64,000 nucleotides of DNA from Tethya wilhelma (lineage: Eukaryota > Porifera > Demospongiae > Tethyida > Tethyidae): positions 3,148,435 to 3,212,434 of the forward strand of contig CAXIPT010000006.1 in assembly GCA_964030475.1 (NCBI GenBank), in the 5' to 3' direction. The first letter of the stretch is position 1, and every line of letters starts with the position of its first letter. The notes beneath the pieces are model-generated. The model was given only the letters and a program-made list of their open reading frames with translations. It was not told the origin of the DNA and made no database searches. Made by a program: the position numbers and the translations under genes. Shown one piece after another: positions 3,854 through 62,000 of this stretch.

Positions 3854-6800
3854 TCAGTGTAAATTATTACAAAGCACACAGTAGGAGTTCAAAATGTGCT
3901 TGCAAATTGTTCCACTAGACAGCTTTGTATCTATGTCTTCAGTTGACCTCAAACGAACAGCATAAGCCTCCTCTTTGAGAAGTTTCATTTTTGTATCAAA
4001 CGAAGAACCTTTCGAAAAGCATTCACTTTTGATATCGCTCTCAGTGAACATGTAAAAGAGGTCACTTTTCATTATTTTCATTATTAACATTGCAACAACT
4101 TCACCCTTGTTCATCCATTGCTTCCAGACACCAGTCAGGAGTTTACGACCACTCAAGTCATTGTCACTGTAGCTTTGTGAGAAATCTGCTAGACAATCCC
4201 TCGAGAAATGACTGCCTCTCTCAAGAGCCATGAAAGATCCACTTATTGAATGATTGCTAGTGTCTTCCCAAGTTAGTAAATTCTTTGGGAGCTTATCCAG
4301 TGTATTGACAACAATCATGTCATTGTCCATGTAGATTCCACCCCACTTGTACAGTACCAGCAGTCGAAGGAGATTAGATTGGGTACTTTGCCAATGAGAA
4401 CTAGACTTTGCAATTGAGAGTTTGGATATAAACTCTTCAGCTGGGGTGTCTTTTAGTAGGTCAGCTAGGGAGTAGCCTGCCACAGTGATATGGTAGCCAG
4501 AATCAGTTAGAACATGGAATTCGGACTGCTGTAGTGTGTTGCTGTGGATGGTGACTTTAGAAAAGGGATGATGGTGGAAAATGGACTCCACTGTTCGCCA
4601 ATGATACCATTTGAAGGTCGACTCTGTGAACACTAAATGAAAAAGCAGTTTTTCATCTCGTTCTCTCTCTGAGGCCAGCACAGGAGGAGGTTGCAGAGGT
4701 ACCATTCCAAACTTGTGAGCAGCATCATGAAGTGCTTCATTTTGACAAATGACATCCCAAAAAGTGGCTCTCATTCTCATCATCATCCCAGGGTTAGGAT
4801 TAGGTGGGGGGTTATCCCAGGGGAAGTTTTGAAACCATTTAATAACCTCTTGGTTGGTCATAGTGTACAAGTCTACAGTATGAAACATAGGTGTTAGTCC
4901 TGCAGTGCGTGGGGACTTCTGATTTTGTGTCCCATCACCCCCAGGCAACCAAGCAGACTGAATAAAGATGACTGGTATTCCCATTCCAACACATGGCAAA
5001 GCACAGTGTATGCGCTGAGTGATAACCACCTTTGCTGCTGCATATTCTTCTAAGAATTGAAAAGCAGTTGAAAACTGTTTCAAGCCATTAATAATGTTGC
5101 GTGGAGAATGTTTCTTCTCGATACCACGCTTTAGAATTTCAGGAGGAATAAGATTCAAGTACATATCTTGTATGTCTACCAAATAAATATTTTCTGTGCG
5201 AGTTCCTGTTGCAGCACTAGGGTTCTTTAACATCAGTGTCATGCATCCAGAAAAGTAAGCCTCCACACCGTATTGTGTTAAAAAGTGAACAGTAGCTGTA
5301 TCACGACAACCAATTGGAGTATGTTGCTTGAAATAGTTGATGTTAGTTTGGCTTGACCATGCCTGCTGAATAACTGGATTTATATGCATTCCTGTGAAAA
5401 TTGGATTGATGTTTTTTGGTGGTGGCCAGTCGACACTTGGATCTCCCCACCATGCATTAAAGAAAGCTGTCACAGGCTCCTTGGTTTTCAACAGTGCAAT
5501 TCTGTCTCTCTCGATGAGATTATCAGCAAATGGTAAGAACTGAAGTCCCGAAAATGCCTGAATTTCATCGCCTAGGTTCTCTGTGGCTGTTCTCTGTGTT
5601 CGTAAATGGTAGGAGAGTGTACCATAGTGGTATTCTAGTACTGAATCGTCTTTTTTGTGATGATCAAGTGTATTATAATTGGGACAATTGTTATTCTGCA
5701 AACAAGTAGTAAATGAAGTTTCCAAGACTCTATAAAAGTCAAACTGAAATACTATGTTTCCTCCAACAAATTTGGGGTAATCACTCAAAAACTGCTGGGA
5801 GAGTGCTTTGATGAAGAGACTGAATTTGGAGAAGCAAGCAATATCAAATTCCTCTCTACTTGTGACCCAACCATTGAAACAAGTGTTGTCTCTGAGGATT
5901 TGATTCTCTCCTGTCACTCTGATCCTGGGATCAATGTAAATGCCTCCGTATTTCCACAAGATTCCAAGCTGGACAGCTTTTTGAAGGTGATCCTCAAAAT
6001 CTATTCCTGCCAAAACTTTGTAGAGAGGATGTCGGGCAAACCACTCCTCAAGAGGTGTGTCCTTCACTAGGTCACTGATCACTAGGAACTCAGAGGTGAT
6101 ACTAGGATTGTTCAACTTGGCGACTGCACGCATACATTGTGATGTTCCACAGAAAACACGACTACAAGTCTTATCACTTTGCCAACTCTTGATATTCTTA
6201 AGAATCTCAGGAGAAAGTGTTCTGTCAAAGACCCAGGCTGTTGCAACTGTTGATTGGCAGTGCTGAGAATGACCAGATCCTTCAGAATTTTTGCTTCCAA
6301 AAATGTGTGGTGCTTGAATTCCAACACACACAATTATGGCACAAAAAACTATCACCCATGTAATTTCTTTGATACCTTTTCTTTTTCTAAAGTTGTAGAG
6401 AGCAAGTCCAGCAAAGAAGATGAGCAAGCCTAATAACATGTTCATTGTCACAGGGGTACGGAAGTAGATGAGGTTGGCTATGATGACAAACACCCTCTTT
6501 GCAAGGTTCAGTGTGGCGTGAGTGAGGGGAGTGATGTCTTGTAGGACAGTGATTGAAGCAGTGTTGTAGGTGAAGTGGGAGGTGGCAGAGACAATGCTCT
6601 CTTGGGCGTGTGTCAACAGCGATATACTTGTTGAAACAAGAACCATCTTCAGGAGGATGGCTGGTATCAGTATTAGTGTACTGCAAATGGATATGACTGC
6701 ATACTTTTGTATTGGACTTTCCCAGGCAAGTTTCTTGAGGAAAATGTTCCTTGTTGCAAAACCCATGTTTGAACTGATGGCTGCAAGCAGTCCCCACACA

Positions 6801-7306
6801 TTGAACGACTTGTCCAACACCACAAACGTACAGGCTCCAGCACTCATTGTCACTATGGACATCAGGGTAGCTATGGTGAGATCTGTGTAGTTCTTATAGA
6901 GAAGAAGAGAGAGGAAGAAGGTGAAGATAGGCTCAAACGACTTCACCACTTGTGTCACACTGGAACTAACTAATGCGTATGCTGCATTTGTGGACATGTT
7001 TCCAACAATGTTAGCAAATCCGCCAATCCAAATGATTGTCTTGGGTGAGTCTGTCGGCCAAATTGCAGCTGACTTGCCTTTTGCAATCTTCAGGAGTATC
7101 ACCGATGCTATTGCACCGAGGAGATGCTGAAACAATGTCACTTCTAGCCACCTAAAGTCTCTGAAGGCAGGCTTCAAATTTGTTGATTGAGCACTCTCAT
7201 AAACCACTCCGTGTGTCACCATCATGGACTTGGAGGCAATACTTGTGATGCCATTAGCAACCCACCAGATAAGAACCACCACTAGCATCTGCCACCAGGC
7301 CCCCAT
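3854..7306 (-). CDS. Four-domain fusion: TPT-family transporter + glycosyltransferase-like + polysaccharide pyruvyl transferase + glycosyltransferase
   Basis: A single exon of 1150 codons from the first ATG (MGAWWQML). Residues 1-310 form a ten-helix triose-phosphate-translocator domain with family marks such as SVTQVVKSFEPIFTFF and NLAKRV. An eleventh helix at about 315-335 would place the rest on the other membrane face, the lumen if the transporter part is oriented as usual. Residues about 350-610 resemble the DXD sugar-transferase family (KYGGIYID), but the acidic motif reads DPR. Residues about 615-870 carry polysaccharide pyruvyl transferase marks: WPPPKNINPIF, PIGCRD near 664, SGCMTLML, QRIHCALPC near 764. 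Residues about 885-1150 are a second DXD transferase with intact DND (WGGIYMDND near 988). Inferred role: import of phosphoenolpyruvate or a sugar donor into the Golgi and building of pyruvylated glycan. Lack of introns differs from its neighbours; transfer or retroposition is possible. Domain identities are confident, the pathway is inference. Confidence 0.9.
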   Translation of the reverse strand: MGAWWQMLVVVLIWWVANGITSIASKSMMVTHGVVYESAQSTNLKPAFRDFRWLEVTLFQHLLGAIASVILLKIAKGKSAAIWPTDSPKTIIWIGGFANIVGNMSTNAAYALVSSSVTQVVKSFEPIFTFFLSLLLYKNYTDLTIATLMSIVTMSAGACTFVVLDKSFNVWGLLAAISSNMGFATRNIFLKKLAWESPIQKYAVISICSTLILIPAILLKMVLVSTSISLLTHAQESIVSATSHFTYNTASITVLQDITPLTHATLNLAKRVFVIIANLIYFRTPVTMNMLLGLLIFFAGLALYNFRKRKGIKEITWVIVFCAIIVCVGIQAPHIFGSKNSEGSGHSQHCQSTVATAWVFDRTLSPEILKNIKSWQSDKTCSRVFCGTSQCMRAVAKLNNPSITSEFLVISDLVKDTPLEEWFARHPLYKVLAGIDFEDHLQKAVQLGILWKYGGIYIDPRIRVTGENQILRDNTCFNGWVTSREEFDIACFSKFSLFIKALSQQFLSDYPKFVGGNIVFQFDFYRVLETSFTTCLQNNNCPNYNTLDHHKKDDSVLEYHYGTLSYHLRTQRTATENLGDEIQAFSGLQFLPFADNLIERDRIALLKTKEPVTAFFNAWWGDPSVDWPPPKNINPIFTGMHINPVIQQAWSSQTNINYFKQHTPIGCRDTATVHFLTQYGVEAYFSGCMTLMLKNPSAATGTRTENIYLVDIQDMYLNLIPPEILKRGIEKKHSPRNIINGLKQFSTAFQFLEEYAAAKVVITQRIHCALPCVGMGIPVIFIQSAWLPGGDGTQNQKSPRTAGLTPMFHTVDLYTMTNQEVIKWFQNFPWDNPPPNPNPGMMMRMRATFWDVICQNEALHDAAHKFGMVPLQPPPVLASERERDEKLLFHLVFTESTFKWYHWRTVESIFHHHPFSKVTIHSNTLQQSEFHVLTDSGYHITVAGYSLADLLKDTPAEEFISKLSIAKSSSHWQSTQSNLLRLLVLYKWGGIYMDNDMIVVNTLDKLPKNLLTWEDTSNHSISGSFMALERGSHFSRDCLADFSQSYSDNDLSGRKLLTGVWKQWMNKGEVVAMLIMKIMKSDLFYMFTESDIKSECFSKGSSFDTKMKLLKEEAYAVRLRSTEDIDTKLSSGTICKHILNSYCVLCNNLH

Positions 7307-39209: not shown

Positions 39210-39718
39210 ATGGCAAGCAACAGCAGAGTGGTTGCAAACGTTTTCAAGGTAGTTGACAAGACATCAGGAAGAGACAGAGTATGCAGGTGAAATTTACAGA
39301 TACAAAGCTAACTTTCAAGTCTGATATTTATCAATTTTCTTTGTTTTTTTTCCTGTCTTTCTTTCTTGCTTGATTCTCCTTTGTTACAAAAGACTTGTGC
39401 AGTACGGTTCAAAATTTGTATCGTGGGCCTTGGAGCAAGAGTCCTTGAGTCCTGATCTAGTGAAGAAACTGAGAAGTCTGGAGGGCTCCATAAGTACTGC
39501 AAGGAAACGTAAGTAAATGTGTACATGAATACTGCCAGCATGATTCTAGTCTAGTCTTGGACACTGCCTAACTATAATGTACTGTCAGAACCTGAATTTA
39601 GTGTTTGCAATTGAAATTATGAAACCGGAAGTGTTTTGAACTGATTGATACTGGAAGTGATTGACACACACACACACTGCGGACAGGCACTGTATACAGA
39701 ATCTGTTATTCCTCCTAT

Positions 39719-39753
<35 letters not shown>

Positions 39754-40291
39754 GTTTCGTCTAGGAAAGAGTGCGGACAACTTCTACAGTGCCCTCCAGA
39801 CCATTCACCTGGGTAACCCCATCCTCCGACTTATAGTCACGCTCACCAAACTCAACCGAGGCCTCTACCTGCTCATTGACCATCTCATCTGGGCCCACAG
39901 AATGAACCTCATCAAAGTCGACTCACCTTATTGGAACAGACTTGCCAACCGGTTCTGGTTGCTTGCCATCTTTCTTGGCTTGTTTCGTGACCTTTACGAG
40001 TTTGTTAGAGCTGTTCAGATTGAAGCAAGAAGACGCAAAGAGTTCTCTGATCCTGCTTCTACTGGTCCTGCCTCAAAGACCTCAACGAGACAACTTGTGA
40101 TGAGTGTCGTTGCTAACAATCGTGCTGTCGTGTTGGATCTGGTGAAGAATTCGAGCGATTTGTTTATTCCACTCTCTCGACTCGATATTTTGTACATTCC
40201 TAGTGGGATTGTAGGGCTTCTGGGTGTGGTTTCATCACTGGCCGGACTTATTGCTACGTACAATGAACATTTAAAGTTGAAATTCAGTTAG
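39210..40291 (+). CDS. PEX11B: Peroxisomal membrane protein PEX11
   Basis: PEX11 family protein, which bends and elongates the peroxisomal membrane before division. Exons 39210-39286, 39393-39508 and 39753-40291 join in frame. The start is MASNSRVVANVFKVVDKTSGR, matching the amphipathic N-terminal helix of the family, then RDRVCRLVQYGSKFVSWALE. Conserved later parts include FRLGKSADNFYSALQ, LTKLNRGLYLLIDHLIWA, NSSDLFIPLSRLDI and a final hydrophobic segment (GIVGLLGVVSSLAGLIATY). The length of about 243 residues is typical. The vertebrate alpha/beta paralogue cannot be decided. Intron 2 ends with a (CA)n run that leads directly into the acceptor AG. Confidence 0.93.
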
Positions 40292-40935: not shown

Positions 40936-43674
40936 ATGGAGTCTCAAGTTCAACACTGTGTCACTTTAGACATGTACAGTAATGATGCAACAGCTGTTGA
41001 AACAATAAAAGATGGTTGTGATTCCGAGGCTCAACCAACAGATCTAGATTCTAGTGCTGGTAGACTCAAGAAAACAAAAGAGACTGGAAACAAGCAATGG
41101 TTTCCTTTTGAGTATGCATATGTTGGATTGGCTGTGGTGATTGTGATTATTTGGGGACTTCTTTCATTGCCAATGGTGTTCTATCATAAGCCAGTGGTAA
41201 GTGTGTTGTCACTGTTGTGTGCATGTGTGTGTATGAATTCAAATTATATTACTCATGCATGCTAGAATAATAAACCCTCTATCTAAATAGCCAGATCTAT
41301 AATTATAGCAATTACCACCATCAATGATTCTATAAGTTAATAATATTATTGTAGTATTTGAGGGGACAAGTATACCAACTGGACAGATTTTCCTTTCAAT
41401 GATTATTCCATTAATATTTCTGACAAGTGTGGGAATATTAAATCCAGATGTGAGAATGTTAATAATCAAGGAAATCCACTAGGTTATGGTCCAGGTTACT
41501 GTAACAACGTATACTGGATATTTCCTTATAATTTGGATTTCCTTATACCAGTCACGTAGTTTCCCCACTGGGAATACAGATATAGAAATTCCATACATAG
41601 AATGGCATGGATGCCAATGGATGGCCCATGATATTATTAGGTAGCACAATCATATTCGATTCACGTGTTTTAATTAAGAATAACTTTGCAAAAACTGGGC
41701 ACATACCGTATATCTTCCAATCTTGTGTGCAGCATGCCTGAGCATGGTGAACCATACAGTCATACAACACTGAATAATAACAACAACAACTATTACAGCC
41801 ATTCCATCTTGTTTGCCTAAGTCTTTTTTATATTATTTTTATTTATTTGTTTATTATTATTTTTTTTAACAATCACATTCATATCTTGTATATAATAAAA
41901 TTAAGCTTAGTGGTTTGGAGAATTCGCTAACTCAGAAAGTCGATCCTCAAAAATTTAAAGTTTCTATGCTATGTATTATGATATACGATCTACTGAACAA
42001 TGAGTTCAGGTAACATATAAAGGAAATCTATATACTCCGTATAATTATGGCACTGGTTCCACACACAAAGGCCCAATAGTATACTGTTACCAAACTAGAC
42101 CAACAATTAATAATAACACATGCCTATATAATTGATCACAGGCAAAGGGTTGTAGAAGAGAATTTTTGAGCTGCATGTCCTGCATGGTGGAAAAACCTCT
42201 GATATATAGTGGACCCTCCAAGATAGGAACACTGTATTATTAACCTCTTAACAAAGGATGATTTTTGGTACCCAAATATTCCAATTCCCTATCAAACAGA
42301 ACCTATAGAATCATGAACCTCTTTACAAAGGCAAACAAGTTAAACAACTTGAATTTATATTGTCCCCAAAATGTCTTTCGTTTCGAGGTTTCAGTGTTAC
42401 AGTAATACTATCAGATTCTGTTTATAATACACATGCATGCATCCATACATGCACACATGTACACAATGTCATGTATAGGAATCCTCTTTAACTACGAGCA
42501 GAATTAATACTTCAGTAGCTGACAATTGTCCCTCAATGATGATCTACAGTGGAACTGTTTGCAGAGAAGAATTAAAATCTCTATCTAATTGCCTCTCTGA
42601 GAATAACATTAATGACGGCGATGTTTTCGTTCAAAGTGACCAATCAGAAACAGTCCGTCCTCTGTTAGATGGGTTTAGGTTAATTGCTAGTGATGAGTGT
42701 AGAGCTGCTGCACTTCCGTTTCTCTGTGTCTATTTCTTTGGTCTATGTGACAGTTCTGGGAGGGCATTTAGACTATCTTCAAGTCAGTGTACCGAGATCA
42801 GCACTGGAGTGTGTCAGAGAGAATGGGCTCTTGCTAGCTCTTTAGTTCTTCCAGGAGAAATTGTACTTCCAGACTGTGAATCATTTCCAGACACTGATGA
42901 AATCACAGAGATTGTAGAGAATTGTAACATGAATAACAATGGAGTGTCAAGTGAAAGTGAGTTAAAACAAGGAGACCTAGCGAATTATGCATAGTTTTTT
43001 TTATTACACATCACGTCATGTGCTGCAATTCATGCAGACGTCACAATATGTATGAAGATTGTGGCTCATACATGCATGTACTACATGTTGTTTTACTAGT
43101 GACTTTTATATAGCCTCAATGTAGAGCCATTCCTGTACTGCTGAAATTTCATCTTTTTATAGGTTATGATCCGAATGATCGTAATATGAGCCCAGAACTT
43201 GGAGACTCATCTGGATTGCTGGTACCAATGAATGATACTGCTTGTGAATGTAATGAAGACTTCTTCTGTAGAGAAACTAATGGAAGTGCTTCCAGTGTAG
43301 TGTGTGTTCCAGATTGTACGTTGTGGTGACACTACTCAGACTCGATTGTTCTCATCACAGATGTATTCTTTGTCACGTCAGGAATTATTGGCATTACTGC
43401 TGGCATCATAGTAGTGGTGATTGCCATCAAAAAACGAAAGAAACTGTAAGTAGTTGCTTTACTATAATATTATAATAATTTCATTGTCATCATGATAATA
43501 CATGTACATCACTACAATAATTTATCATAGCTTTTCCTATCCTTCCGTGCTGTTGGTTTATCAAACTCTTACAACAGTTTTGTCTAGTAAGTTATTTGCT
43601 GTAATGTACATCATTAAACGATATAGAATATATGTATAATATGTGCTTAATAAAAACCAAGCCTTCTAGTGCTC

Positions 43675-48600: not shown

Positions 48601-49858
48601 CCACTGATATTTTACTATTATAGGCTTTAGTATTAGGCTTTAGTATAATACTAGCTCTTTCAGTGGCTAAAATTGTTTTTTTTTTTTGTGGCCGGTGATT
48701 TGCCTGATTATTATATACTGATTAAATAACTATTATTAGGACTCGGATGACCAAAATATAGGCTTGCAGCAGTCGCCAAATGATATTGAAGTCTCCTGCA
48801 CTCACAGAAACAAAGGTTGTACATGGACTGGAGAACTTAGACAGCTTGAGAAACATTTGAATGAGCACCCACGATCGGACGAAGAACTGGAAGGGTGCTT
48901 ATTTACATGTGTTGACTGTAAATTTAAATCTATTGGATGTGAAATGAAGCCAGCTCGTGGCGACATACCAACACACATCAATGATCATTCTAAAATTCAC
49001 TTGGGTCTCCTTCACAGCAGCAAGTCATCTCTGGATGTAGCATTTCTTGAGGCACAAGATCAGAATGCGAAACTGAGTCAGCAAGTTATTGGAGTAAACG
49101 TTAAGGTTGCCGAAATTGAAGAAAAACACGAGCGTGAATTCTCAAAGCTACGCAGAACCACAGAAGAAAAGCATAAGCATGAGTTATCAGAACTAGCCAG
49201 CACCACAGAACAGATGACTCAACTTAAAATGGACAGTCAATATCAGGAGCTGCTAGCAGAGATGATGGCTCAGCAACAGCAAGATCTGAAACAAGAACAC
49301 GAGCAGGAAATAGCAACTCTTAATACAATCATAAAAGAATTGCAATATCAAGTCGATACTCGACCACCCTCATCCTTCAAAACACACCAGCAGAACCCAA
49401 TAATGCTTTCTATAGGGGCACCTTCTCTTCCTCTTACATTCACACTGACAAACTTGACAGCTCACAAGATGAATGATATCAAGGTGCCATCACCACCTTT
49501 TTACACCCACTATCATGGTTATAAAATAAGTTTGTTCATGTATCCAAATGGTCAACCCAAGACATGCTGGCACGGCTCTTATATTTCGGTGCACATTTTC
49601 TTGATGAAAGGAGATTATGATGAACACCTCAGTTGGCCATTTTTGGGAAGTATTAAGATCAGTCTATTAGATCAAGAATACAACAAAGAACACCATGTAA
49701 GGATAATTCCTTTCAATGATAACATGCCTGATGAGATGTCTGAGGCTGGCAGAGTTACTGTACAAGATACAGGATGTGATGACTTTATGTCTCACAGTGA
49801 TCTGCAACCCAAGTACCTCAAGAATGACTGTCTAGTCTTTGAAATTTCTATTTATTAA
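45683..49858 (+). CDS. Death domain - TRAF fusion protein (DD, unknown module, TRAF zinc finger, coiled coil, MATH)
   Basis: Exons 45683-46025, 46085-46866, 48302-48406 and 48740-49858 join in frame to 782 residues. Residues about 18-110 form a death domain (ENIKEIALLLNSWELLASHL, helix-rich, ending CELL). Residues about 150-370 are a helical module of a type I recall from many sponge and cnidarian proteins but cannot name (FTILSNFWDYLHPDLLHYLV). Residues about 415-480 have a TRAF-type zinc finger (CTHRNKGCTWTG...HLNEHPR, then C..C...GC). About 500-610 is a Gln/Glu-rich coiled coil. About 620-780 is the TRAF-C/MATH fold (SPPFYTHYHGYKISLFMYPN, then GSYISVHIFLMKGDYDEHLSW and WPFLG). TRAFs trimerise and bind receptor tails; joining to a death domain would bypass a TRADD-like adaptor. 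No RING finger is present, so ligase activity is unlikely. A broken copy of exon 1 lies 5 kb upstream. Confidence 0.9.
47088..47352. mobile_element. Mariner-type MITE in DD-TRAF intron 2
   Basis: Starts TA|GGGAACTGTGTCTCTATTAT and ends AAACAGTGCTTATAATCATAGTGACACAGTTC|TA; inverted ends with TA flanks. Confidence 0.8.
47668..47898. mobile_element. Inverted-repeat element E (ACCGTATAGCCAGAAAATTTGGC ends)
   Basis: The left arm ACCGTATAGCCAGAAAATTT is the exact reverse complement of the right arm AAATTTTCTGGCTATACGGT. GCCAAATT words repeat across the interior, and a palindromic CGTACGT core sits in the middle. It is noncoding. Relatives with diverged ends are at 48001-48225 and 59278-59487. Confidence 0.85.
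48001..48225. mobile_element. Inverted-repeat element related to E (ACCATATAGCTGGAAATA ends)
   Basis: The left arm ACCATATAGCTGGAAATACTGACG pairs with the right arm CGTCAATATTTCCGGCTATATGGT with few mismatches. The interior is built from GTCAAATT words in place of the GCCAAATT of element E. Confidence 0.8.
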
Positions 49859-50343: not shown

Positions 50344-53341
50344 TCACATTTTGTGCTCACAAAGTGTGTCATCGGTCAACGTATCTTGACCACACCCCCT
50401 CCCTGTGGAGTCCTGCTCCCCATACCACCAAGGTTGAGGTACTGCACCCGACACTTGGCACAATGTCATCCACGATCGTTCATCTTTCTCCTTCTTCTCT
50501 TCTTGGTCTTCATACCACTTTGAATCATCTCTTTTCACAGTCTCGTTCCAGAATTCCGGTTCTGGCGCAGTTTCATTCTGGAATTTTGATACCACAGTCT
50601 CATTGTGGTATTTAGGCACCATAGTTTCATTATTAGATTCAGATTCACCATTCTGATATTCAGGTAGCATGAGTGTCTCATTCTGGTGTTCAGGAACTAG
50701 CACCACGGTCTCATTCTGGTAATCTGGACAAGGTATTGTGCTCTTATTCTGGTATTCAGGAGTGAGATTCTGAAATTGTGGTTTGAGAGAGGGCGTTGAG
50801 GAGGTGAGTGGAATGGGAGGTGCATCGATGCTGAGAGTGGAGCCATGGGCGTGACGGAGGGGAGGGGGCGTGTCCTCTTCTGCTGTAATGTAATCATTAA
50901 TTGACGATGCAGAAGGAATATTTGGTACCACTGGTTGGGCAGCGTTTGAGTCGTTTTCCCTGTCTGAACTGTGAACTTCCACTACAGTGTATAGGGGACT
51001 GAACGTCATTGGCGTGGTAATTACCCGGGTCTTCCCCTCATTATTGTCCCTATTACCAAGAGCGTCCGGTGTGACGGTCATCGGAAGAATGGTAAGATCA
51101 TTCACCACTGAAGGAGTTACCCTGCCACACTGATCACGATCTTGTAGCAAGTGTGAGGGAGTATTCCCACCCGCCTCTCCTTCTAGTCTAGGCATGGCCT
51201 CGCCCCTAGGCCTGGCCTCGCTCCTCTTGCTCCACATGTCCCAGTAATCTCCCCTCTTGTCCAACAGCTCATCGTGAGTGCCCTGCTCTTTCACGCGACC
51301 AGCAGAGAGTACAATGATACGATCAAACTGCTTTGCACGCTCGAGTTTGTTTACCGTCGCAATGAGAGCTTTGCCGGTAGATACCTTTATTATTTTATCA
51401 AATAATATCGCATCTTCGATCATAGGCTCGGAATTGTCATCAATCACTTCGTCGACAATATAGATGTGAGCTCCACTCACCACCATACGAGCCAGAGCCA
51501 GTTTCAGTCTCACTCCTCTGTCTAGCAACTCACGGCAACCATCACCACTGCCGCCGCCGATCATTGTGTCGTAGCCATGAGGGAGTGAGCTCACAAAGAC
51601 ATCAAGGTCGGCCATCTTGGCTGCCTCTTCTACAGCTTTGTTGCTAGCTTTGAGATTCCCAAGTCGAATGTTCTCACGTATCGACATATTGAAGACGTGG
51701 TTCGAACGAAACATTGCAGCCAGCTTTGCATTCCTTCTAACCATCACATCACCAAGTATAGGGGTGTACATTTTCAGCACTAATTTGAGGAGCGTACTCT
51801 TTCCAGACCGACTCCCACCAACAATAGCCACCCTCTCTCTGGCCCTGAACTTCAACGACACATTGTAGAGGCACCAGTGTGTGACGCTGGGTGTTGAATC
51901 GTAGCTGAAACAAACACCGTGAAGTTCTATAGGACAGGAAGCAACAGCACGTTGAGAATCACTCGTATGTGTTTTGTCTTGGTGTACAGTCATGTCTTTC
52001 TTGCCATCGTACAGCAATGTGTTGATTCTCTCCAGAGCCTTTGCTGAGGACTGGAAGAGAGGGGATGACGGAGACATGGAGGAGAGGTTCACCATGACGA
52101 TGAAATAGAGCAGGAGCAGTGAGACTCCAACGTCAAAGGAGAGCGACTCCAACTGGACGAGCAAGACGATCGAGAATGTCAGTAGCGTGCCTCCAATTAC
52201 AGCGATGACTATCCAAGAGAGCCGTAGCAAATGTGTTACGATGAGAGAGGATTGAGCCTTGCTGCGATATTGAAGGCTCTTTATCCGAGAACTCCAATAT
52301 TTCGATAGATTGTACACTCGATTCACTAGATATCCATCGATCTCTTCTTGGAGGAGTGACTTCAACTGATCCATTGCTTGGTCTTTGATGGAAGAGTGGT
52401 TGGCAAAATAGATAGAGAGCAAGTGATGAAGAAGGTAGCTCAAAGTCAAAAATAGGAGAATTCCAATTCCAAGTTTCCAGAACAATATCATACCATAGAC
52501 AATGTAAGCAACTGTCAATGTTAGCGAAAACATAACACACTGTAGCGGATGAGCAATAAGACTCTCCAGTGTATCCACATCGTCTAAAAATCTCACAACT
52601 ATTTCCTCTTTCGAATGGACATTGAAAAATGACGGACTCGCTTGGTGTACTCGCAGTGAGAACTCTTTACGGAGTTTATTACTCACTTGAACGGCGACGG
52701 AGACTTGAAGGAAGGAGTTGAGGATGTTGAGTAGGAAGTGAATGATGAGTGCACCGAACATCACCCCTAACCACTGCAGTAGAGGGACGGCATCGTTGAA
52801 GGTGTACGGTGGAGCTGAGCGATTTGAAACGATCTGTGGCTCTTCACTGGTGACTGTTCCCACTAGCGACACGAGTTGTCCAAATGCAAAGGAAAAAAAC
52901 ACGTTGAGGACGACATCACTTAGGACAATGATGAAACACAGCAAGAGGGCAGGCCAAAAGTGGGAGAGATGTTTTGCGAAAAGCTTCCACAAGAATCTAA
53001 CCTGGGAGATGGAGTGGGATGACGCTTTTCTATCACCATGGCGACCACAAGTGGAAGGGTTCACAGCACAACCAGGAGTGGCTATATTCTTTTTGTCTTC
53101 ATTGTCCTTCTTGTCTGAGGAGAGACCATACTGCTCATGTACTGCTACTGGAAGGAAGGCCTTTTCTTTCCCAGGTTTGCTAGAGGCTGACAATCTACAG
53201 AAATTTTAATATTATTTTGACAATGACTCAGGTTATTCAGTTTTTACTCTGTGGTTATAGAAACTTTACGCTTATCAAAACTTCATGGCCTTACCTAAAC
53301 GTTGTTGTTCTTCTCGGTTGAGCTGCAGTACTAGTGTTCAT
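50344..53341 (-). CDS. ABC half-transporter with degenerate nucleotide-binding domain and a long repetitive tail
   Basis: Exons 53341-53295 (MNTSTAAQPRRTTTFR) and 53194-50344. One membrane domain (about residues 75-380, five or six helices) and one ABC domain (about 420-650), most like the ABCB type (FVSSLPHGYDTMIG, THDELL). Numbering from the Met just inside exon 2: Walker A GGSRSGKST (459-467) has Arg for the central Gly. The Q-loop lacks Gln (LAAMFRSNHVF). The signature LSGGQ reads LLDRG (about 556-560). Walker B with Glu is kept (HIYIVDEV). The D-loop is altered (IDDNSEP), and the H-loop His is Asn (IATVNKLERA). The 290-residue tail, predicted cytosolic, has imperfect repeats of the form EYQNET. 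It could be a regulatory or structural pseudo-ATPase. Neighbour on the minus strand: the C-terminal exons of ATP synthase alpha. Confidence 0.88.
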
Positions 53342-55520: not shown

Positions 55521-58500
55521 AATACAATCAGGATCTGGATTTGGATCAGGATCAGGATTTGGATCTGGATCAGGTATAATAATAAATATTAAGTAAGATC
55601 ATTATTTCATATGCCATTTTGTATGCTAATTGACTAGCGTATAGAGCAAAAAGTTAGCTAATACAATGCCGCACAAAACGTACATCATTTGTGATCATGG
55701 AGAGCAATATTTACACACAATGGTATACTTTTTTGCTACTCTAGCTGGGAGATGCGATGGATTTTCCTGTTATGATTCTGAAAACACTTGTATACCATAC
55801 TATTATGTTTGTGATGACTACCCTCATTGTACCAATGGAAGAGATGAGGCTGAATATATATGTGGTATGGAAACCTACACACAAGCACTGCGTGCATATT
55901 TCACAAAAATAATATTATTGTGGTCATGGTTGTTTATGAATTAGGAATGCGCTCAGGGTCAGGATCTGGATCTGGATCAGGTATAAGTTGAATTGAGTAA
56001 TGTGGGGTATATAGTCCTTATATCATATGCTGACTAGTCATCTCAATGCTTTGTTCGCTAAATATTTCACACACAATGCTGCTACACATCTCCAGGATCT
56101 GAACTATCATTTCTGATCACATTCCCAAAATACTCTCAAACCGGAGATATCCAATGTGCTGCCATACCTATATTTGGAGACGACATCATTGAAAACGACA
56201 CAAAACTGTTTGTACGGTTCGAAGCAGACTATTATCTGGACCACGTTGTGAATGGATCTTCAACGGTAGTGAATATCAGGGATGATGATGGTATGCACTC
56301 GTAATAACATTGGCACACTCCATTGTTATTTTTTTGCATCTTGATATTGTAGGAGCAATACTTTCTGTTTATACTGCCTATCAAAGTGTTTATGAAACTG
56401 ATGAAAATACTACCGTGTACATCTGTGTTGAACTGGATGACATTGGTGAAGGTCTAAGAAGAGAAGTGGTCGTACAGAGTCACTTAAATTTGCTTACAGC
56501 AAGTAAGCATGTTAGGCAAAATTAAAAAAAAAATCAAATCTCAAACTTTCAAAATTTAGTTTGCCGATCACATAACTATGTGTATTAGATTACTCTGATG
56601 TGAGGGAAAGATACTACTTGCCTGATCTCATTTTCCCTGTTGATTCAATGGCTGGAGAAGTACGCTGCACTCAAGTCACAATAATAGGGGATGACTCTAT
56701 TGAGGATACAGAGTCCTTTACTGTCTACTTTGTTCCACTCAACCATCTCGATCAATTCAACAACAGATCATCAACTGAAGTGTCCATACACGATGATGAT
56801 GGTAAGTTATACATAGCCTCGTATCCAGACCATTCCCAGTCTTTACAGAAATATGCCACTTGATTTTGGATTTTTTTTTTTGCTGTTATCTCACACATAC
56901 ATATGACTATTTTCATACATACAGGAGTATTGCTCATGGTACAACAGGAGATGCTCAGAGTCAGTGAAGGTGATGCACCTAATGCTACGAGAGCCTGTGT
57001 ATCCTTGGACACAAGAGGAGGGCAGCTGGAACGGAGTGTCTACATCTATGCATCCTTGAATCTGACAACAGCTGGTATTAAGACACACATGTAGCTTGCC
57101 TTTGGTTCAAAATGATCCACATTATTATGTTGCGTGTATTTGACAGAGATGAGTGATGTTCGTCTGGCAAATGAAGGAGGCTACATTATATTCCCTGAAG
57201 GTTCTCTAAGTGGCGAAATTCAATGTGCAGATATAGTGGTATACGATGATGAACGTGTTGAAGATGACGAAGAATTCACTGTGGTGTTCACACCATCCAA
57301 TTCACTCGACCAATTCTATGGCAACTCCACAACACGAGTCACAATTGAAGACAATGATGGTTAATAACTAGCCTCATTTTGTTACGTTAAAACTTTTTTT
57401 GCATTACTCCATGGTCTTTTTATCCTCTTCACATACACAGGTGCCCTGATTTCAGTTCGAAATGCTACCCTCTATGTCACAGAGGAGATGGACAATAGTA
57501 CTCTCTACATCTGTGTTATCTTAGATGCAAGAGGAGGGCTGGAGAGAGATGTAGAAGTACAACCATACTTGAATCTCAGTCTGACAGCTAGTAAGGCATT
57601 ACTATGAAACTTTCAGTGAAATGTAACATAAAGCTCTAAGGTTACTCAACATTTATACTGAGATTTGTTGGTACCAGGAGCAGTTGTACTCAAAAACAAG
57701 CAGAATCATCTCTACACCTACAATAATACACTTATCTATAGGTGACTTGGATGTGGGGCCTGGAATTAGACCAGTCATAGTCTTTGAAGAGGGTACTACT
57801 GGACCAGCAACTGTTGGCTGCACTACATTCACCATTTTTGCTGACCAACTTGTGGAAGAGGATGAAGAATTTTCAGTCTATTTCGGCAATAACCATCCAC
57901 TAGACGTTGTGAAACCATCAGAAACACACGTTACTATTCTCGATGAAGATGGTATGTATTATGTATATGTGAATAATTCTTTTAAGTTAACCACACTTGG
58001 AACTTTTGAACTTTTTTGTGATGCACTTAAATAATAATTTATCTTGTGCTTGCAGTTGTGTATATTGGATTGGAACAAACTACATTTGAAGTAGAGGAAG
58101 GCTATCCAGTAGAAGCATGTGTGAGTATCACGAGTGGTGAACTGGAAAGATATGTAGTAGTATCACTCAGTACGGGAGATGGGACAGCTACTCCAAGTAA
58201 GAAATATCACCATTCTAAATATATAGACTTTCTACAATACAGCTTCAATAATTTGCTTCGATTTTCTTCAGATGTTGACTACGAAGCTCTCCGGACTTAC
58301 CTCACATTCACACCATCAGAGACCACCATCTGTCGATACATCAATACCACTGAGGACATGCTTTCCGAATACAATGAAACACTATTGGTCTATTTGGACA
58401 GTAATGACTCTGCAGTCATTTTATCTCCAGACACAAGCATGGGGCAAATAACAATACTGGATGATGATGGTAATTTGAGCAAACCAAACTATATCCCGTG

Positions 58501-58961
58501 CATGCATTGAGCACTTGTGAAGAGAATGTTTCTTTGTCTCATAGAAATCACCATTGGATTTGAACAAGCCAATTACGCCATCAGGAAACCATTCAATACT
58601 ACCATTGTGGTGTGTGTAGAAGTGAGAGAGGGACAACTGATGAGGACAGTACAGTGTACAGTATCCACAGAGGATTATACTGCAACAGGTACAGTATATG
58701 CATGCACACCTCTACTGTGAAAGTTATTTCAATCGATTGAGATGTCGTGATTGTTCACAACAATAGCACCAGATGACTACAGTGAACGAATGGAGCAATT
58801 GGAGTTTACACCAGATAGTCAACAGCAATGTTTAGAGATTGAAATTGTCAATGACACACGTACTGAAGGACCTGAACAATTCTTTGTCGATCTTTCAACA
58901 TTTGAAGTTCGAGTCAATCTGGATCCAGCTCGCACTACAGTACACATCATGGACAATGATG
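55521..58961 (+). CDS. LDLa and Calx-beta repeat cell-surface protein, 5' and 3' ends missing
   Basis: Visible exons: a Gly/Ser linker (55521-55573), one LDL-receptor class A domain with six Cys (55746-55865, CDGFSCYDSENTCIP, YVCDDYPHC), a second Gly/Ser linker (about 55944-55980), then Calx-beta repeats: a lone second half (56096-56290) and five full repeats, each split by an intron in the middle (56353-56502/56589-56801, 56925-57074/57147-57359, 57441-57590/57742-57951, 58056-58196/58272-58469, 58545-58688/58767-58961). Each ends in the calcium-binding type motif (IRDDD, IHDDDG, IEDNDG, ILDEDG, IMDNDG). Calx-beta domains bind calcium in adhesion proteins and exchangers. No signal peptide, membrane helix or stop codon is visible. 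The last donor (GTCAGA) is weak and is followed at once by a CA microsatellite and then PSMA4 exons. Confidence 0.88.
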
Positions 58962-59093: not shown

Positions 59094-62000
59094 GTAAACG
59101 TCCGTTTGGTGTCTCCATCTTGTACATGGGTTGGGACCCTCACTTTGGCTTCCAGCTCTACCAGAGTGACCCCTCAGGCAACTATGGTGGCTGGAAGGCC
59201 ACCTGCATTGGAAGCAACCACCAAGTGAGCATTTTATCATGTAAACCATAGTATTGTCTCTTCAGGTTCTTTGTTAGATACCATATGGTGGGTAAATTTG
59301 GCAAACTAAAATCTGGGCAAATTCCTATTTTAGCATTATTGGCAATTTTTTTATTTAGCAATTTATTTCCGCACTCTGCATTGTTTATATGCACGCGCAT
59401 GCGTATATAACTGTTTGGCGATTTGAAGAAGAATTCACCAATTTGCCAAATTTAATTCTTGCCAAATTTACCTACTATACAGTAGTTTTGCTAGCTGAAT
59501 TGTGTGCGATGTTAAATAGTGCAAAGTGAAAATATATTACAAAACCCATTATTTAAATACATCTGTGCTGTCCTTTAGTTCTAACTGCTAAAATCACTGT
59601 GAAAAAAATCATAGTATAAGTGCGCAATACCATCAAAACTCAACTATCAATTACAGTAACCAATGATCTAAAAATAGAAGAAGCATACTAACATAGTCAC
59701 TAAGCGTAAATAATTATTCTAATCTTTCTCCAACTCCAAACCAGCAAAACGATTTTGCAATTCGAGTGGTGATGTGTATCTTAACTTGTGTTTGTGCGCT
59801 TTTGGTTTCTCAGCATTGCCATGTTTTGAAGAAGCTTCTGGTTTGTGCTTGGACGATGATGACTCTGAAACATCATCAGATTGAACTGCTGTGTAATCTG
59901 GTATAGCATCAAGCAGTTTTACATGTGTATAGAATATTGTCTATGAGTGGTGACTCTGTAGGTTCATATCCGTTAAAGTAATAACTCATGGCAATTTTAC
60001 CATCATAAAGGAAAGCTGGGGAAATGCTATTGAGAGGCTGCATAAGTAGGGTATTAAGATTATCCACAGCATCAAAGCATGACTGCCACTGAGAAAAGAC
60101 ATGTACTGCATGTATCCATTGGCCACGTTGTTGTGGGCGTAGGTTCACAATCTGAAGTGGAACAGCTTCCTTCTTGCATACGATGAGGCAGGATAGAAGA
60201 GCTTTTAGCAAATTTGTTGATGGTTTAGCATTTTTAGCCCAATATATTACTGAAGCAATAGCTAGCCGCCAATCTTCAGGAAGGTTTTCAATTTTCTTGG
60301 GATTGCAGCCAAGCAACAAATACAAGAGTTCCTTTCGTTGAATGTCACTTAGTATACTTACATCTTCCAAAGAGGGCAACCTTCTTTCTGCTATGATAGA
60401 AATGGCTGGGATTCTAACACTAAGTACCTCTAGTTCCTGTCGAATGAACTCTTCCACTGTGTCAACCCCAAGGATACCATAGGTATATTGTCGGAGTGGT
60501 TGACTCAAAACATGGGCACTTTTGGACCTGGTGTCGTCAACACCTATTTCAAGAACACATTTCTGTTGCATGAGTGAATCCATCACAAACTTCGACAGAT
60601 GGCCATCAAGAAATGCCCTCGTCGTCCAAGCTGGAATAACTTCACCTGAGAGTTTGCGAATTTCAGGCATTTCTCGTAGCTGGTCGAGACTCTTTGGGAC
60701 CTCAGAATCGTAAAATTTTCCGACTTCTTCACATCGTTTCAAAAGCGTTGTTTCAAGACGGTGCTCAAGACCAAGTGAAGGAACTCGTTCCAAAAACTCT
60801 TCCAATGACTGAAATGAGCTGGCGTACACAATTGCCGTTGCGATTTGATTCCCCATTGATGCCAGTGGTGACCTTGAGGTCAAAAGTGCCTTGTTGGTGT
60901 GACTATTCAGGCCATCAAAAGAAGTTAGGAAGTCGTTTCCTACTAATGCTGGAATGATTAGGCGAAGACGGGCATCCTTGAACTGAAATTGTTTGGCAAA
61001 ATCAGCTACGTGGAACACCTTGGTAACTAAAACCGAAAAGTCGTCTTTCATAATATTATCGTCAAGGCAGAAATTTAGTGGAATGTATCCTCCTTTGAGG
61101 TTGAACATGTAGTAATCGGAGTCATTCCCCAAAACCGGGCAAGAGTAGTGGTTGGCCAGTTGAGAAATAGTGACATCTGCTTCACCTTCTACCACAATGA
61201 ATGGAATGGCAAACTCAATGAGAGTCATGATAAATACTTTGAAAGCAAGAATGGGTAGCACGTCATTGAAATATTCAAATGCATTTTGGTCATCGTGATA
61301 GAGGCTCATGTGGATCTTCTTGACTCTCTGCTTTCTACGATGTAAGATGGTTTTTGCCTTCTCATTTTTGTAAGTAGTACCATCAAGGACAACAGTTGGG
61401 ATGATGTTCGCATCGTCTAGCTTTCCGAAAAAGTCGATCACTTCTTCACGAAACTCAGGATATTGACCGCCATTTGCCCAATCGAATTTCTTGTACAAGG
61501 CATAGACTAAAGAAGATCCATCCACAATGATGTTTCCTTCGATTCTTGTGGTTTTCCAACCACTGAAACTCTCTTCTATGAACTTTGTAAGACCAAGAAT
61601 TCCCATTTCTATTCCACACTAAGATTGACACGCCCAGCTTTGGATCTTAATTGGGGCGAGCCGGAGCGAGCCCCACACTAGTGTAGTCAACGGCGAAATT
61701 TTCTATATATTGTATGTTGTATAGTCTGGCGTACGTCCTTTGTTTAAATTAGGTTATGTTTATGACGATCATTGCCTGTTCAGCCTTACAGCGCATGCGC
61801 GTAGGTCCACGTGTTTATCGTGATTTTGCACTTCAGAGAAGTTTGACCAGTCAGTGAGTCAGTCACAGAAAGCTGCTGCTTGAGCTGAAAACAGAGTAAA
61901 CTTAAATGCTCGCCAAGTTGGTGCCCCTTTAGTTAAAGACTCGAAACTGAGCCATGCAATGACCGGAGAGACCACAATTAGAGGGGCTGAAGACTACCAA

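What the first reader, a model, noticed from the sequence alone, without database searches (positions are those of the whole stretch)
3854..7306. Self-contained pyruvylated-glycan factory: PEP-type transporter fused to a pyruvyl transferase and two glycosyltransferases
Seen: one intronless frame holds a ten-helix triose-phosphate-translocator domain, an extra helix that would turn the chain into the lumen, a DXD transferase-like domain, a polysaccharide pyruvyl transferase domain and a second DXD transferase. Known: the TPT family includes phosphoenolpyruvate translocators, PEP is the pyruvyl donor of this transferase family, fission yeast uses separate Golgi proteins for PEP import and galactose pyruvylation, and the Microciona aggregation-factor glycan has been reported to carry 4,6-pyruvylated galactose. 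Inference: in this animal one protein imports the donor and builds and pyruvylates the sugar, perhaps for species-specific cell adhesion. I know of no described fusion of this kind.
Basis: partly seen in the sequence, partly recalled or inferred. Interest (0 to 1): 0.95.

Follow-up and report, generated by a model that had tools for sequence, protein, structure and literature searches.

The report
Transporter fused to a pyruvyl transferase
An animal gene, probably from a sponge, encodes one protein that seems to import phosphoenolpyruvate into the secretory pathway and use it to put acidic pyruvate caps on sugars, a decoration reported on glycans involved in sponge cell recognition; it belongs to a gene family whose copies have exchanged parts.

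Summary
In detail: window 7306..3854 (minus strand) is one uninterrupted 1150-residue frame with a 10-helix TPT transporter domain, an eleventh helix, a GT-A domain, a pyruvyl transferase domain and a second GT-A domain. It is not a one-off: 54 of 87 relatives list the same three Pfam families, and this genome holds 11 further full-length copies. Named carriers are Halichondria panicea (sponge) and Xenia (octocoral).

The middle domain is a pyruvyl transferase by profile, fold (best match Pvg1p) and active-site residues. The first GT domain lacks DXD in 87 of 87 sequences, so one active glycosyltransferase is predicted.

New evidence: transporter-site and pyruvyl-transferase residues are often lost together while the second GT stays intact, or the reverse; no sequence lost all three. 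This supports PEP import feeding pyruvylation, but tree-aware support is marginal and 8 of 13 lineages with an altered pyruvyl-transferase site keep the transporter site. Paralogues are mosaics. Transcription, location and activity are not shown. Searches of the held open-access library found no described fusion.

The parts
3854..7306 (-). whole frame, 1150 aa, four-domain fusion protein
   Evidence: relatives; own-genome copies
6383..7306 (-). residues 1-308: TPT transporter domain, ten helices
6941..6943 (-). codon of K122, aligned with a lysine of 5y78 (K204, number and phosphate-binding role recalled)
   Evidence: alignment; K in 67 of 87
6494..6499 (-). codons of K270-R271, aligned with the KR pair of 5y78 (K362-R363, numbers and role recalled)
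   Evidence: alignment; table
6299..6373 (-). residues 312-336: eleventh hydrophobic helix, inferred to carry the chain into the lumen
   Evidence: hydropathy of at least 1.6 in 77 of 87, 1.21-1.57 in the other 10
5639..6256 (-). residues 351-556: first GT-A domain (GT1), predicted inactive
5924..5932 (-). D459-P460-R461 where DXD is expected in GT1
   Evidence: 0 of 87 with D-x-D
4742..5629 (-). residues 560-855: pyruvyl transferase domain (PPT)
5567..5578 (-). N577-L-G-D580 motif of the PPT domain
   Evidence: N, G, D in 100 of 100 shorter relatives aligned
5300..5311 (-). G666-C-R668-D669 motif; R668 proposed equivalent of Pvg1p R217 / CsaB R148
   Evidence: R in 100 of 100 shorter relatives; residue roles from passages of PMC4872226 and PMC10435577
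5006..5017 (-). Q764-R765-I-H767 motif, equivalent of Pvg1p R337 and H339
   Evidence: aligned with VITDRLH of 5ax7; R and H in 100 of 100 shorter relatives
3863..4669 (-). residues 880-1148: second GT-A domain (GT2), with Gb3_synth C-terminal part
4319..4327 (-). D994-N-D996, DXD of GT2
   Evidence: D-x-D in 62 of 87

Best explanation
The protein is a membrane-embedded pyruvylation machine of the secretory pathway. The N-terminal TPT domain exchanges cytosolic PEP for luminal phosphate. An eleventh helix puts the rest of the chain in the lumen, where the PPT domain transfers pyruvate from PEP as a ketal onto a terminal hexose, probably galactose, and releases phosphate that the TPT domain can export again. 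GT1 is a degenerate GT-A domain that most likely binds acceptor. GT2, when its DXD is intact as here, adds a sugar to the same or a neighbouring chain. Shown: domain identity, order, predicted fold and site residues, the multi-copy mosaic family, and a tendency of TPT and PPT sites to be lost together. Inferred: PEP as cargo, topology, location, acceptor, phosphate recycling, coupling, GT1 role.
For: Domains and folds. PPT active site: of 24 positions that I chose, 14 never vary in 100 shorter relatives (N577, G579, D580, Q583, R600, H641, G666, R668, D669, T763, R765, H767, P771, R800), and the window protein has all 14. TPT site: T106, K122, Y247, K270 and R271 align with the same residues in 5y78; where 5y78 has a histidine (H185, number recalled) this protein has N103, as have 62 of 87 sequences. 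N is recalled as the residue of plant PEP translocators; that is not a tool result. Coupling: of 87 sequences, 33 keep all three sites, 20 keep TPT and PPT with GT2 lost, 19 lose TPT and PPT with GT2 kept, 15 are other mixtures, 0 lose all three; 6 of 9 lineages with a degraded TPT site also lost the PPT site. Topology: mean net charge +2.5 in the 12 residues before and +0.6 in the 12 after the eleventh helix; C386 and C391 in 87 of 87, C1143 and C1146 in 95 percent. All 13 PF04230 matches reported for the genome lie in frames of this family. dN/dS against the close paralogues C5b-C5e is 0.14-0.32 in TPT, PPT and GT2.
Against: The tree-aware test of TPT-PPT association is marginal (Pagel LR 9.74, p 0.045, lenient sites; LR 8.35, p 0.079, strict). 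12 of the 19 co-degenerate sequences are one clade, and P0080 and P0062 may share one PPT loss. Of 13 lineages with an altered PPT site, 8 keep the TPT site (10 sequences in all keep it, several changed only at R668, two of them own copies); 5 sequences in 3 lineages have a degraded TPT site and intact PPT. Exchange among paralogues makes a single tree a poor basis for such tests. No K361/K328 equivalent was identified in PPT. TIGR00817 scores 89.9 bits against a cut-off of 317.9. Cargo, transport, location and transcription are untested.
Confidence: 0.6

Rival explanations
1. The TPT domain imports a nucleotide sugar for the glycosyltransferase GT2, and PPT gets its PEP by another route.
Against: The best fold match, 4 Z units ahead, is the triose-phosphate/phosphate translocator, with the aligned site residues kept. 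19 of 87 sequences lost the TPT and PPT sites and kept GT2, while 20 of 87 kept TPT and PPT and lost GT2, the opposite of what this rival predicts.
Confidence: 0.12
2. The TPT domain is only a membrane anchor or scaffold; PEP comes from a separate transporter as in fission yeast.
For: Frames without a full TPT domain exist in the genome (C15, C5:5573193, C7:1253665), and 5 of 58 sequences with an intact PPT site have a degraded TPT site.
Against: 53 of 58 sequences with an intact PPT site keep the TPT site, and TPT dN/dS is 0.14-0.18 between close paralogues (C5b-C5e). Frames without TPT may be truncated genes.
Confidence: 0.12
3. The PF04230 domain has taken on another reaction or is only a binding domain.
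For: Identity to Pvg1p is 13 percent in the structural alignment, and no K361/K328 equivalent was identified.
Against: All 14 positions invariant in 100 of 100 shorter relatives are present, including proposed equivalents of R217, R337 and H339 of Pvg1p; E-values of 2e-59 to 2e-55 to the three informatively named bacterial pyruvyl transferases in the list.
Confidence: 0.1
4. The frame is read or processed as separate proteins (split transcripts or cleavage), so there is no working fusion.
For: No RNA or protein data for this gene could be examined.
Against: One frame end to end in the window gene and 11 further own copies and in NCBI gene models of Halichondria panicea (1163 aa) and Xenia (1175 aa).
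Confidence: 0.06

Closest known systems
Fission yeast Pvg1p with the PEP transporters Pet1p/Pet2p
   Same: Golgi pyruvylation of galactose with PEP brought in by transporters (PMC4872226 and PMC6801904 passages); best fold match of the PPT domain.
   Different: Separate yeast proteins; here transporter, pyruvyl transferase and two GT-A domains are one chain. By sequence the PPT domain finds Bacteroidota-type enzymes at about 1e-58 but Pvg1p only at E 0.0099 over 35 residues (a smaller database, so the E-values are not on one scale).
Bacterial 'polysaccharide pyruvyl transferase family' proteins (Winogradskyella, Chitinophagales, Olivibacter)
   Same: 31-34 percent identity over 79-98 percent of the domain and the same invariant residues.
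   Different: 315-336 aa without the other domains; the fused domains form their own clade.
Triose-phosphate/phosphate translocator 5y78
   Same: Fold over 286 residues and aligned site residues.
   Different: Plastid protein (recalled) without luminal enzymes; its H185 (recalled number) is N103 here.
Alpha-1,4-glycosyltransferase type proteins (Gly_transf_sug / Gb3_synth, GT32 by recall)
   Same: GT2 passes both Pfam cut-offs and has DXD.
   Different: Attached to transporter and PPT; GT1 is a degenerate sister without DXD.

Membership tests
Polysaccharide pyruvyl transferase (PF04230) | profile score above the curated cut-off | tested here: met
   47.4 bits against 25.3; 51.9 for the domain alone
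Polysaccharide pyruvyl transferase (PF04230) | PEP-binding residues equivalent to Pvg1p R217, R337, H339 | tested here: met
   R765 and H767 by direct alignment to 5ax7; R668 by the conserved GxRD motif only; roles from PMC4872226 and PMC10435577 passages
Polysaccharide pyruvyl transferase (PF04230) | lysine equivalent to Pvg1p K361 / CsaB K328 | tested here: inconclusive
   no lysine identified; R800, invariant in 100 of 100 shorter relatives, might take its place; not superposed
Polysaccharide pyruvyl transferase (PF04230) | Pvg1p-like fold | tested here: met
Polysaccharide pyruvyl transferase (PF04230) | transfer of pyruvate from PEP to a sugar | not testable with these tools
   needs an enzyme assay
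TPT family (PF03151) | profile score above cut-off and ten helices | tested here: met
   115.6 bits against 30; ten helices in the model and fold match to 5y78
Tpt phosphate/PEP translocator (TIGR00817) | score above the curated cut-off | tested here: not met
   89.9 bits against 317.9; so not filed as a member, only as probably working like one
Tpt phosphate/PEP translocator (TIGR00817) | phosphate-site residues T188, K204, Y339, K362, R363 of 5y78 (list recalled) | tested here: met
   T106, K122, Y247, K270, R271 in the alignment
Gly_transf_sug / Gb3_synth glycosyltransferase (GT2) | both Pfam cut-offs and a DXD motif | tested here: met
   49.2 bits against 23 and 30.6 against 22.3; D994-N-D996
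Gly_transf_sug glycosyltransferase (GT1) | DXD motif | tested here: not met
   D-P-R; 0 of 87 with D-x-D; 22.8 bits against 23 alone

The most novel reading that the evidence does not exclude
Clusters of fused import-and-pyruvylate enzymes that trade segments by gene conversion generate a set of acceptor specificities, so that a species, or even an individual, writes its own pyruvylated glycan code for self-recognition. In the group of the window gene, the central segment with the presumed acceptor faces of GT1 and PPT is old and diverse, while transporter and GT2 are kept alike.
Probability: 0.2. Interest if true: 0.95.

Novelty: new variant of a known kind. Interest (0 to 1): 0.8.

Why it matters
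A pyruvylated carbohydrate unit of a sponge adhesion proteoglycan was reported in 1993 (Spillmann, seen only in reference lists), but my searches of the held open-access library turned up no described animal pyruvyl transferase (searches returned no papers; one search showed 30 of 6,423 listings; most subscription journals are not held). This family gives concrete candidate genes, including one in Halichondria panicea, whose adhesion glycans are partly sequenced (PMC7828597 passage). It is also, as far as searched, an undescribed case of a donor transporter fused to the enzyme that would use the donor inside the secretory pathway. Subfamilies that kept only one half offer a natural test of that coupling.

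Tried and rejected
Named relatives of the TPT domain alone: the search returned 5 hits of 278-379 aa, none named, so the transporter's subfamily could not be settled that way. Positive selection on the central segment: not seen; dN/dS is below 1 in every domain of the pairs Q-C5a to Q-C5e (highest 0.66, GT1, Q-C5e), although single 50-residue windows exceed 1 on few changes (351-400 in Q-C5c and Q-C5d, 1101-1150 in Q-C5e; not tested further). A central segment that is always the most variable: rejected as a rule; it holds for the C5/C6 group and some pairs thought to share a contig (P0060/P0061, P0002/P0003, P0047/P0048/P0052, P0008/P0013; judged by equal contig length), but P0005/P0006 and the C7c/C1/C7f genes show the reverse. 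Full-length transcripts inferred from short database contigs: not claimed, contig type unknown. Host species: not settled; no tool named it. Fold matches of GT1 to GT domains of bacterial toxins are read as a shared GT-A fold only. Papers: combined searches for the fusion found none; open-access text on the 5y78 substrate site was not found.

Full report
What was seen. The frame is real and exact: 3854..7306, minus strand, 1150 residues, no internal stop. TPT, PS_pyruv_trans, Gly_transf_sug and Gb3_synth pass their Pfam cut-offs on the whole protein; the first Gly_transf_sug stretch alone falls just short, 22.8 bits against 23. AlphaFold2 on 54 aligned sequences gives mean pLDDT 86.9, ten helices over residues 1-308, an eleventh at 312-336, then three globular domains. 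A protein search returned 87 relatives, 54 of which list all of PF03151, PF04230 and PF04488; others lack one of these models or are shorter. The two with an organism name are Halichondria panicea (demosponge) and Xenia sp. Carnegie-2017 (octocoral, on a 17.4 Mb contig).

Own genome. The window lies in a 124.6 Mb, 204-contig assembly. Eleven further full-length frames of 1140-1246 aa were extracted, five on C5, five on C7, one on C1; one of them (C5:5244757) aligns only to residue 1032 in its best match. Several shorter frames lack the transporter or are broken. All 13 PF04230 matches and 13 of 14 PF03151 matches reported lie in frames of this family (these searches score only the best candidates, exon by exon).

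Glycosyltransferase domains. GT1 and GT2 are homologous. GT2 has DXD in this protein and in 62 of 87; GT1 in none of 87. GT1 is therefore predicted not to be a DXD-type enzyme; an acceptor-binding role is my inference.

Natural experiment. In the 87-sequence table, TPT was scored degraded if two or more of six residues differ (T106, K122, E125, Y247, K270 or R there, R271), PPT lost if R668, R765 or H767 differ, GT2 lost if D994 or D996 differ. Counts: 33 all kept; 20 GT2 alone lost; 19 TPT and PPT lost with GT2 kept; 8 PPT alone; 2 TPT alone; 3 TPT and GT2; 2 PPT and GT2; 0 all three. Six of nine TPT-degraded lineages also lost PPT, but only five of 13 PPT-altered lineages have a degraded TPT. 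With the definitions the simple association is strong (Fisher 5.5e-09 lenient, 9.5e-05 strict, tips counted as independent), the Pagel test marginal (p 0.045 and 0.079), and TPT and PPT are each negatively associated with GT2 (Pagel p 0.018-0.065). My reading is that transporter and pyruvyl transferase form one unit and GT2 another, each dispensable while the other is kept; the support is suggestive, not conclusive.

Mosaic paralogues. Between the window gene and C5b-C5e, synonymous divergence is 0.10-0.14 in TPT, 0.96-1.10 in PPT and 0.23-0.41 in GT2. Among 12 own genes, four segments give different trees: AU tests reject the other segments' trees in 11 of 12 comparisons, the exception being the middle-segment tree on TPT data (p 0.217). 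Copy C7a matches C7c at 0.49 of bases in TPT but 0.94 and 0.91 in the hinge and the first half of GT2; C7c and C7f match at 0.96 in the second half of PPT and 0.95 in the hinge, between stretches at 0.76 and 0.74. Segment exchange, such as gene conversion, is the simplest account. By domain, dN/dS stays below 1 for the window gene against C5a-C5e; a few 50-residue windows exceed 1 on few changes.

Biology. Passages of PMC7828597 describe sponge glyconectins with sulfated and/or pyruvylated hexoses, a pyruvylated trisaccharide in Microciona, and partial glycan sequences for Halichondria panicea. The Halichondria family member keeps the TPT and PPT sites but has DSN in GT2, a pyruvylation-type member. 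[quoted passage not shown] A role in adhesion is therefore a hypothesis.

Verdict. The mechanism is well supported at the level of domains and sites, moderately by correlated loss, and not at all yet by experiment.

Noticed in passing
G000 contigs C5 5.24-5.28 Mb and C7 1.225-1.27 Mb (L013-L018, L021-L027): Two gene clusters of the family whose members are mosaics with very unequal synonymous divergence along the gene; a hinge after the PPT domain is nearly identical between otherwise distant C7/C1 copies.
   Followed up: yes
relatives P0069, P0071-P0079, P0081, P0082: A 12-member clade that keeps the full-length layout and the GT2 DXD but has lost both transporter-site and pyruvyl-transferase residues; its present function is unexplained.
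   Followed up: partly
G000 C15:756897-759506, C5:5573193-5575853, C7:1253665-1256307: Frames of 869-886 aa with GT1-PPT-GT2 but no full transporter domain: truncated copies, or genes with a separate first exon.
   Followed up: no
window 58031-58510, plus strand: Exon-like frame with a Calx-beta domain; sponge aggregation-factor proteins are recalled to contain such domains. Whether this gene is one was not tested.
   Followed up: no
window 50344-53205, minus strand: Single 953-aa frame with ABC transporter membrane and ATPase domains.
   Followed up: no
window 59909-61618, minus; 48740-49858, plus; 39665-40291, plus; 42479-42994, plus: Frames with XPG-type domains, TRAF/MATH, PEX11 and a Frizzled-type domain.
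   Followed up: no
proteins P0067, P0040, P0049 and P0094, P0097, P0101, P0102, P0110: The octocoral Xenia protein groups with several unnamed sequences; the fusion may predate the split of sponges and cnidarians or have moved between them.
   Followed up: no
protein P0104 (319 aa): A short pyruvyl transferase that branches alone between the fused clade and the other relatives; its source is unnamed and it might mark the donor lineage.
   Followed up: no
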